This document shows positions 4,251 through 62,952 of a stretch of DNA of 64,000 nt, one piece after another. Both the position numbers and the translations under genes were made by a program. The stretch is from assembly GCA_026197075.1 (NCBI GenBank), contig JAPHQV010000015.1:124001-188000 (forward strand). Reading direction: 5' to 3'. A model generated the notes under the pieces. That model ran no database searches and was not told where the DNA came from. It saw nothing but the letters and a program-made list of their open reading frames with translations. Each line of letters starts with the position of its first letter. Position 1 is the stretch's first letter. This DNA comes from Gammaproteobacteria bacterium. Lineage in GTDB: Bacteria; Pseudomonadota; Gammaproteobacteria; DSM-19610.

Positions 4251-4362
4251 GGTCGGCACAGGCCCATGCCCACCCGCGGGACGCCGTGAATACATCCCTG
4301 TAGGCTTGACGGCCGCATCCCTGCGGCCGACACCCGCCGGTGGGCATGGGCCTGTGCCGACC
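4251..4362. repeat. long hairpin element A with conserved double-hairpin core
   Basis: Arms 4251-4280 and 4333-4362 are complementary over 30 bases with one mismatch. The 52-base core (4281-4332) holds two small palindromes, TACA-TCCC-TGTA and GGCCGCA-TCCC-TGCGGCC, both with the same TCCC loop. The core recurs at 61024-61075 on the opposite strand (42 of 52 bases identical), but the arms there are unrelated in sequence. It lies between two minus-strand genes (ABC protein upstream, aminotransferase downstream). Confidence 0.85.
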
Positions 4363-32599: not shown

Positions 32600-32716
32600 T
32601 TTTCACCGCAAAGGCGCAAAGGTCGCAAAGAAATTCCGCATTCGCGGGAATGACGGGTGATCAGTCACGGGCTCTATGAGGTTTGCTTTGCGCCCTTTGC
32701 GCCTTTGCGGTGAAAA
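32600..32716. repeat. inverted-repeat element, CACCGCAAAG family (copy 1)
   Basis: Arms 32600-32630 and 32686-32716 are complementary over 31 bases with one mismatch (CACCGCAAAGGCGCAAAG near the outer end). The centre contains the separate short palindrome TTCCGCATTCGCGGGAA. It lies in the accD-folC gap, inside an otherwise tight gene run. Confidence 0.85.
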
Positions 32717-47561: not shown

Positions 47562-47595
47562 GTGCGTTCCTTCGGAGGGTAAAGATCAAAAGCTT

Positions 47596-47733
47596 GTTAT
47601 CACCGCAAAGGCGCAAAGTACGCAAAGTAAAACATTAAATAATTATTTTTATTAATTGTTTTATATTGGTTTTCTTTGCGTACTTTGCGCCTTTGCGGTG
47701 ATAACGAATTTTTCCGCGCCTTTGCGGTGATAA
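47596..47733. repeat. inverted-repeat element, CACCGCAAAG family (copy 2, with partial third arm)
   Basis: Arms 47596-47627 and 47674-47705 are perfect 32-base complements around a 46-base AT-rich centre (47628-47673). A partial repeat of the right arm, GCGCCTTTGCGGTGATAA, follows and ends at 47733. The centre is identical in reverse complement to that of the element at 48424-48528, on the other side of leuD. Confidence 0.9.
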
Positions 47734-48423: not shown

Positions 48424-48528
48424 TCACCGAAAAGGCGCAAAGTACGAAAAGAAAACCAATATAAAACAATTAATAAAAATAATTATTTAATGTTTTACTT
48501 TGCGTACTTTGCGCCTTTGCGGTGATAA
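48424..48528. repeat. inverted-repeat element, CACCGCAAAG family (copy 3, inverted twin of copy 2)
   Basis: Arms 48424-48451 and 48498-48525 are complementary with two mismatches (CACCGAAAAG and TACGAAAAG on the left). The 46-base centre (48452-48497) is the exact reverse complement of 47628-47673. It occupies the leuC-leuD gap. Confidence 0.9.
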
Positions 48529-54665: not shown

Positions 54666-54796
54666 TTTCACCGCAAAGACGCAAAGATCGCAAAGGAAAA
54701 ATTCTATTATCGAATTCTTCAGCCTTCATCGCGGTAGCAAGCCGCATAGGAGTTTTTGCGGTTCTTCTTTGCGACCTTTGCGTCTTTGCGGTGAAA
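54666..54796. repeat. inverted-repeat element, CACCGCAAAG family (copy 4)
   Basis: Arms 54666-54695 and 54767-54796 are complementary over 30 bases with one mismatch (CACCGCAAAGACGCAAAG). It lies between aroC's stop and the MFS start. Confidence 0.88.
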
Positions 54797-57827: not shown

Positions 57828-57924
57828 GTTACACCGCAAAGGCGCAAAGCACGCAAAGAAGTTCATGTAAGTTCCCTACAAGACAGGATGTCACCTTTGC
57901 GTGCTTTGCGCCTTTGCGGTGAAC
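57828..57924. repeat. inverted-repeat element, CACCGCAAAG family (copy 5)
   Basis: Arms 57828-57858 and 57895-57924 are complementary except for one inserted base (CACCGCAAAGGCGCAAAG, then CACGCAAAG). It lies seven bases after the prmB stop, upstream of the hemN promoter. Confidence 0.88.
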
Positions 57925-60992: not shown

Positions 60993-61106
60993 GATTCGGG
61001 AGGGCGGGGCCTCCTTGCCGGACCGTAGGCCGCATGGACGCGGCCTTCGAGCGTACAGGGATGTATTTACAGCGAGTCCGGCAAGGAGGCCCCGTCCTTC
61101 CGAATC
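60993..61106. repeat. long hairpin element B with conserved double-hairpin core
   Basis: Arms 60993-61023 and 61076-61106 are complementary over 31 bases with two mismatches (GGGGCCTCCTTGCCGGAC in the perfect inner part). The core 61024-61075 is 52 bases, and its reverse complement matches the core of element A at 42 of 52 positions, including TACATCCCTGTA and two GGCCGC/GCGGCC stems. It lies between psd and suhB and may end psd transcription. Confidence 0.85.
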
Positions 61107-62838: not shown

Positions 62839-62952
62839 TTTCACCGCAAAGACGCAAAGAACGCAGAGAAAGGCCGTAGCTTGGCTTGTAGCAAGCCAAG
62901 CACCGAAACATAGTAATAAGTTATCTTTGCGTTCTCTGCGCCTTTGCGGTGA
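62839..62952. repeat. inverted-repeat element, CACCGCAAAG family (copy 6)
   Basis: Arms about 62841-62868 and 62925-62952 are complementary with three mismatches (CACCGCAAAGACGCAAAGAA). A smaller palindrome GCTTGGCTTGTAGCAAGCCAAGC lies within the interior. It sits between convergent genes, just after the secF stop. Confidence 0.85.

What the first reader, a model, noticed from the sequence alone, without database searches (positions are those of the whole stretch)
4251..4362. Hairpin element with a conserved double-hairpin core and locus-specific arms (pair with 60993-61106)
Two distant loci share a 52-base core (42/52 identical, opposite strands) that contains two palindromes with TCCC-type loops. 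Each core is enclosed by about 30 bp of near-perfect complementary arms, but the arm sequences are unrelated between the copies. Simple copying would conserve the arms, so selection appears to keep pairing rather than sequence, or the core recognises and inserts into existing hairpins. That is the behaviour of a structured RNA or of an element targeting palindromes.
Basis: seen in the sequence. Interest (0 to 1): 0.72.

Follow-up and report, generated by a model that had tools for sequence, protein, structure and literature searches.

The report
Mobile hairpin repeats with drifting arms
The two sites are copies of a small mobile hairpin found dozens of times per genome in many gammaproteobacteria; its double-loop tip hardly changes, while its two arms change sequence together so that they stay complementary, probably because the cell's copying machinery rewrites one arm from the other.

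Summary
The two sites belong to a repeat family with 58 copies in this genome and dozens to over 100 in Stenotrophomonas, Marinobacter, Methylomonas and others. Each copy is a 52-nt core with two small hairpins, closed by arms that pair for about 27-31 bp and then stop sharply. The core is homologous to the Yersinia repeat YPAL/RU-2 and to the Rfam sRNA Ysr224.

The arms belong to the element: they keep a weak family consensus and some recent copies share them. They drift as pairs: between close Stenotrophomonas species, compensated double changes are about as frequent as one-sided ones. The core is inverted between two congeneric genomes at 5 of 7 comparable loci. Template switching between arms is known to cause both effects (PMC8604942).

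The strand whose loops read CANGGANG keeps its fold: its G.U wobbles outnumber the other strand's 95 to 18. CANGGANG, the Rsm/CsrA consensus, stands in both loops of 89 of 93 copies, but orientation to genes is random. Insertion into existing hairpins, a terminator and RAYT-linked REPs are not supported. The mobilising enzyme is unknown; CsrA binding is untested.

The parts
4251..4280 (+). Copy 1, outer arm (pairs with 4333-4362)
   Evidence: 30 nt, 97% complementary
4281..4332 (-). Copy 1, conserved core; the minus strand is the strand with GGA loops
   Evidence: Model hit 4270-4345 +, 90.0 bits, E 1e-19; the model describes the TCC strand
4291..4302 (-). Copy 1, hairpin H1, loop CAGGGATG (4293-4300 on the minus strand)
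   Evidence: Structure counted; loop motif
4310..4329 (-). Copy 1, hairpin H2, loop CAGGGATG (4316-4323 on the minus strand)
   Evidence: Structure counted; loop motif
4333..4362 (+). Copy 1, other arm
60993..61023 (+). Copy 2, outer arm (pairs with 61076-61106)
   Evidence: Inverted repeat; fold
61024..61075 (+). Copy 2, conserved core; the plus strand is the strand with GGA loops
   Evidence: Model hit 61011-61086 -, 88.7 bits, E 2e-19
61027..61046 (+). Copy 2, hairpin H2, loop CATGGACG (61033-61040)
   Evidence: Sequence; structure
61054..61065 (+). Copy 2, hairpin H1, loop CAGGGATG (61056-61063)
   Evidence: Sequence; structure
61076..61106 (+). Copy 2, other arm

Best explanation
The two sites are copies of a gammaproteobacterial family of miniature, non-coding, dispersed hairpins related to YPAL/RU-2 (Ysr224). 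One unit is about 112 bp: a conserved 52-nt core with two small hairpins plus about 30 bp of arm on each side. Shown: copy number and spread, fixed arm length, conserved core, pair-wise drift of the arms, strand bias of wobbles. Inferred: the units spread as whole hairpins, moved in trans by an unidentified enzyme. Inferred: after insertion the arms stay complementary mainly because template switching during replication copies one arm onto the other, so that single mutations become double ones, the arms lose their family likeness, and the core is sometimes inverted between the arms. The core is kept by function. Inferred: the strand with CANGGANG loops is the one whose folded form is recognised, as RNA or single-stranded DNA.
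For: Family: 58 copies in this genome, up to 111 elsewhere. Homology to YPAL/RU-2: local score 48 against a shuffled maximum of 24; Ysr224 model matches full length, E 6e-7. Arms are part of the unit: sharp end at about 30 bp, residual consensus 0.39-0.61 against 0.27-0.41, shared arms in L094-L096, L032, L056. Concerted arm change: 1.9 and 3.7 compensated against 2.0 and 2.3 one-sided changes per species pair at about 4.5% flank divergence, where independent mutation would give about 0.02 compensated. Core inversion between G000 and G001 at five loci. Template switching homogenises arms and inverts spacers (PMC8604942). Strand: G.U 95 against 18, 49 copies against 5.
Against: Blind template switching at DNA level does not predict the strand bias of wobbles, so a second force is needed. 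At the L248 locus one-sided changes exceed compensated ones within alleles (1.7 against 0.6). The inversions rest on draft assemblies; G001 has a run of N beside the core at the window locus; no inversion was seen at the two Stenotrophomonas loci read base by base. Mobility is inferred from copy number; no clean empty site with a target duplication was read, and several apparent empty sites are deletions. Rfam annotates Ysr224 on the TCC strand.
Confidence: 0.62

Rival explanations
1. Selection alone keeps the arms paired: the GGA-strand transcript is a functional RNA (mRNA stabiliser, processing site or sRNA) and each broken pair is repaired by a second mutation under selection.
For: Wobble bias 95:18; strong covariation; Ysr224 is listed as an expressed sRNA in Yersinia (PMC9029176).
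Against: Orientation to flanking genes is random, 81:83 upstream and 78:93 downstream. Compensation is about as fast as neutral divergence, which asks for strong selection at dozens of dispersed copies. It does not predict core inversion.
Confidence: 0.2
2. The conserved tip is a dual binding site for CsrA/RsmA, and the dispersed hairpins act as decoys or cis sites for it. This is a claim on function and can be true together with the best explanation.
For: CANGGANG in both loops of 89 of 93 copies found without requiring it, the published Rsm consensus (PMC6849547); also in RU-2. CsrA found in 19 of 20 carrier genomes, the exception being 75% complete.
Against: The linkers are conserved as strongly as the loops, which CsrA does not require. 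Random orientation to genes. Some copies have an insert in the H1 or H2 loop that breaks the motif. CsrA is common in the class, so its presence is weak evidence. No binding data.
Confidence: 0.3
3. The core recognises and inserts into pre-existing hairpins, so the arms belong to the target.
For: Arms differ between loci; YPAL targets are reported to span or lie next to dyad symmetry (PMC2229807); other hairpins insert into the loops of this element.
Against: Fixed 27-31 bp arm length with a sharp end; residual arm consensus fading outward; copies sharing whole arms.
Confidence: 0.05
4. A REP-type element mobilised by a resident RAYT/TIRYT tyrosine transposase.
For: [quoted passage not shown] maltophilia with a tyrosine transposase gene (PMC3733652); inverted pairs of this element are common there; G000 has two Y1 genes.
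Against: Only 1 of 41 Y1 loci has an element near it, a degenerate one. Three Marinobacter genomes and one Halomonas genome carry 16-77 copies without a Y1 gene.
Confidence: 0.07

Closest known systems
YPAL / RU-2 (Yersinia palindromic sequence, 167-168 bp miniature insertion sequence)
   Same: Homologous core with both hairpins and CANGGANG in both loops; dispersed, intergenic, tens of copies. A few G000/G001 copies also share the outer motif ATTGACAAAG.
   Different: Here about 112 bp with near-perfect 30-bp arms that differ between loci; YPAL is longer with an interrupted stem (fold) and is described from Yersinia and Erwinia. Target duplication not tested here.
Rfam RF02770 Ysr224 (Yersinia sRNA 224)
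   Same: Full-length model match at L256, E 6e-7, and weaker ones at L030, L196, L168.
   Different: 37 bits against a gathering score of 70; the Rfam strand is the TCC strand, while the wobble bias points to the other.
CsrA/RsmA binding hairpins (as in CsrB, RsmZ)
   Same: CANGGANG loops in both hairpins.
   Different: Dispersed repeat, no fixed orientation to genes; binding untested.
REP / RAYT and TIR / TIRYT repeats
   Same: Short palindromes, intergenic, often in inverted pairs in S. maltophilia.
   Different: Not flanking Y1 transposase genes; subfamily B lacks the GTAG tag.

Membership tests
YPAL / RU-2 superfamily (filed as a relative, not as YPAL proper) | Homologous core sequence | tested here: met
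   Local alignment score 48 and 47 for the two window copies against shuffled maxima 24 and 28
YPAL / RU-2 superfamily (filed as a relative, not as YPAL proper) | Length of 167-168 bp with outer TGACAAA/TTTGTCA ends | tested here: not met
   Window copies are about 112 bp and lack these ends; a few other copies have ATTGACAAAG
YPAL / RU-2 superfamily (filed as a relative, not as YPAL proper) | Target duplication of 3-26 bp on insertion | not tested
   No clean empty site was available
Rfam RF02770 Ysr224 | Score at or above the curated gathering score of 70 bits | tested here: not met
   No match in the window at gathering; best score elsewhere 37.3 bits
CsrA/RsmA target RNA | GGA within CANGGANG in hairpin loops | tested here: met
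   89 of 93 copies in both loops
CsrA/RsmA target RNA | Binding of CsrA/RsmA | not testable with these tools
   Needs protein and RNA
RAYT-mobilised REP | Copies flank a Y1 tyrosine transposase gene | tested here: not met
   1 degenerate hit at 41 Y1 loci
Intrinsic terminator | T-run after the 3' arm | tested here: not met
   T frequency 0.11-0.27 beyond the inner arm on the 3' side, no run
ERIC (RU-1) | Homology to the 127-bp ERIC consensus | not tested
   Considered from memory only

The most novel reading that the evidence does not exclude
A Gammaproteobacteria-wide mobile hairpin carries a dual CsrA/RsmA-binding site as its conserved tip, so that each genome holds dozens of dispersed CsrA decoys or landing sites, while template switching keeps the stems near-perfect and occasionally flips the tip, changing which strand presents the sites.
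Probability: 0.2. Interest if true: 0.82.

Novelty: new variant of a known kind. Interest (0 to 1): 0.55.

Why it matters
It joins a Yersinia repeat (YPAL), an Rfam 'sRNA' (Ysr224) and many unannotated intergenic hairpins of gammaproteobacteria into one family, and warns that Ysr224-type hits can be copies of a dispersed repeat. It offers natural material for measuring how fast template switching rewrites inverted repeats: dozens of loci per genome and many close species. And it makes one specific claim easy to test: whether a dispersed hairpin with two Rsm/CsrA consensus loops binds CsrA.

Tried and rejected
RAYT/TIRYT mobilisation: Y1 genes were searched in 23 genomes and are not flanked by the element. 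Phage or plasmid origin: no hit in annotated phages, plasmids or IMG/VR. Terminator: no T-run. Strand-specific UTR role: two gene-orientation analyses, the first crude, the second with codon scoring, found no bias. Outgroup comparison at the window locus: intergenic sequence too diverged to show an empty site. A first run of the arm comparison was one base out of register and was replaced. De Gregorio 2006 (PMC1636318), the original YPAL paper, is not held; YPAL facts come from two papers by Delihas. A literature search with core k-mers found nothing on the family.

Full report
CHECK OF THE OBSERVATION. Both hairpins are present as described. Arms 4251-4280/4333-4362 are 97% complementary around 52 nt, and the second site has the same build. 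The cores are 42/52 identical on opposite strands; no other 60-mer of the window matches better than 32/60. A covariance model of the family finds only these two in the window at E below 0.3.

SIZE AND SPREAD. BLAST with one 60-mer gave 43 hits in the whole genome, the covariance model 58. The same-genus genome G001 and several family members carry it. One listed MAG is labelled Nitratireductor, an alphaproteobacterium (L142); this may be a binning error. Copy numbers at E <= 0.01: S. maltophilia E301 111, Marinobacter 29-77, Methylomonas 47, E. haloalkaliphila 40, Halomonas 16, E. shaposhnikovii 1. In an even sample of the phylum 14 of 299 genomes, counting this one, have strong hits, all in the same class (stricter filters and at most 16 candidates scored per genome). 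No hits in phage, plasmid or viral-contig collections.

ANATOMY. 57 diverse copies align without gaps over 76 columns. Structure: long closing stem, a short inner stem, hairpin H1 (3 bp, hexaloop) and hairpin H2 (7 bp, hexaloop). 92% of cells pair, against 31-42% when partners are slid; 337 cells have double-sided changes (98 in shuffles); H2 and the arms covary strongly. That set was collected with a pattern fixing most core positions, so its core conservation is partly by construction; the arms were free. In 141 copies Watson-Crick pairing stays at 0.77-0.95 out to 26 bp and falls to background by 30; arm lengths peak at 27-31 bp.

THE STRAND. In the arms, mismatches that are G.U on the strand with GGA loops outnumber those on the other strand 149 to 34 in all copies and 95 to 18 in copies with non-redundant arms (49 against 5 copies, sign p about 4e-10); the direction is the same in every genome group. 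A folded single strand, RNA or DNA, is therefore maintained, and it is the GGA strand. On it both loops read CANGGANG in 89 of 93 copies from a search that did not require the motif (the model itself was built from copies that had it). That is the published Rsm/CsrA consensus A/UCANGGANGU/A (PMC6849547). The linkers are equally conserved, so CsrA cannot be the whole story.

GENES AROUND IT. With flanks scored by codon use, the gene on the 5' side of the GGA strand lies on that strand in 81 cases and against it in 83; on the 3' side 78 and 93. There is no T-run. A strand-specific UTR or terminator role is therefore not supported.

HOW THE ARMS EVOLVE. (a) Arms are part of the element: fixed length, residual consensus fading outward (identity 0.39-0.61 against 0.27-0.41 shuffled; core 0.87-0.95), and some G001 copies share arms and differ by compensated changes (L094-L096). 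(b) In Stenotrophomonas two loci were followed in about 20 species. At about 4.5% flank divergence, same-allele pairs at the L139 locus differ on average by 1.9 and 3.7 compensated pair changes and 2.0 and 2.3 one-sided changes in the two elements; independent mutation would give about 0.02 compensated (my estimate: 26 pairs times 0.045 squared, a third of which would pair). At L248 (1.2% divergence) the figures are 0.6 and 1.7. Some species carry wholly different arm-and-core alleles at the same place although flanks differ by 1-5%. (c) Between G000 and G001, flanks 91-95% identical, the core is inverted at the window locus, L005/L091, L015/L093, L027/L097 and L339/L105, and not at L330/L089 and L343/L100.

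MECHANISM. Template switching between the arms of an inverted repeat homogenises the arms and can invert the spacer (PMC8604942), and has been proposed to create and maintain RNA hairpins (PMC8794818, abstract). It accounts for (b) and (c) together. It does not explain the wobble bias, so a constraint on the folded GGA strand is added. Shown: the patterns. Inferred: the process, mobility in trans, recognition of the folded strand.

WHAT IS KNOWN. The Rfam model Ysr224 matches full length but below its cut-off. The published RU-2/YPAL sequence (PMC2759123) has the same core and CANGGANG in both loops. YPAL is a 167-168 bp miniature insertion sequence of Yersinia and Erwinia with target duplications of 3-26 bp at or next to dyad symmetry (PMC2229807). 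The window elements are relatives of YPAL, not YPAL proper. Self-complementary TIR repeats of S. maltophilia were reported with a tyrosine transposase (PMC3733652); they may include these elements, but Y1 genes examined here are not flanked by them.

LIMITS. G000 and G001 are drafts, contigs often break at the element, and in G001 a run of N lies beside the core at the window locus, so the inversions need long reads. Species pairs are not independent. The original YPAL paper could not be read. No expression or binding data were available.

Noticed in passing
window 32600-32716, 47588-47733, 48424-48525, 54666-54796, 57832-57921, 62841-62952: Another palindromic repeat family in the window, with arms built on TCACCGCAAAGGCGCAAAG / CTTTGCGCCTTTGCGGTGA, at least six places; a related stretch is inserted in G001 beside L089.
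   Followed up: no
L023, L029, L342 (G000); L099, L103, L104, L105 (G001); L268, L269, L286-L288, L295, L301, L302 (Stenotrophomonas): Extra hairpin-forming inserts sit in the H1 or the H2 loop of the element, in two distant lineages. They may be nested mobile hairpins or long structural variants.
   Followed up: partly
G056 and relatives; L236-L250, L308-L328: In S. maltophilia most copies come as inverted pairs 150-400 bp apart; at the L247 locus a segment of about 400 bp is inverted in G125, G102 and G112.
   Followed up: partly
L379 (G316:C1:94433-95645): Six copies in a direct tandem array of about 227-bp units together with a GTAGGAGCGGCTTCAGCCGCGA-type repeat.
   Followed up: no
L027, L028, L332, L337, L343, L344, L346 and several G001 contigs: Draft contigs end inside or next to the element, so these hairpins appear to break short-read assemblies, and copy numbers in drafts are likely lower bounds.
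   Followed up: no
G033:C18:546826-549109 (L043): The only copy detected in G033 lies about 2 kb from its csrA gene; no such link was seen in the other genomes, so probably chance.
   Followed up: no
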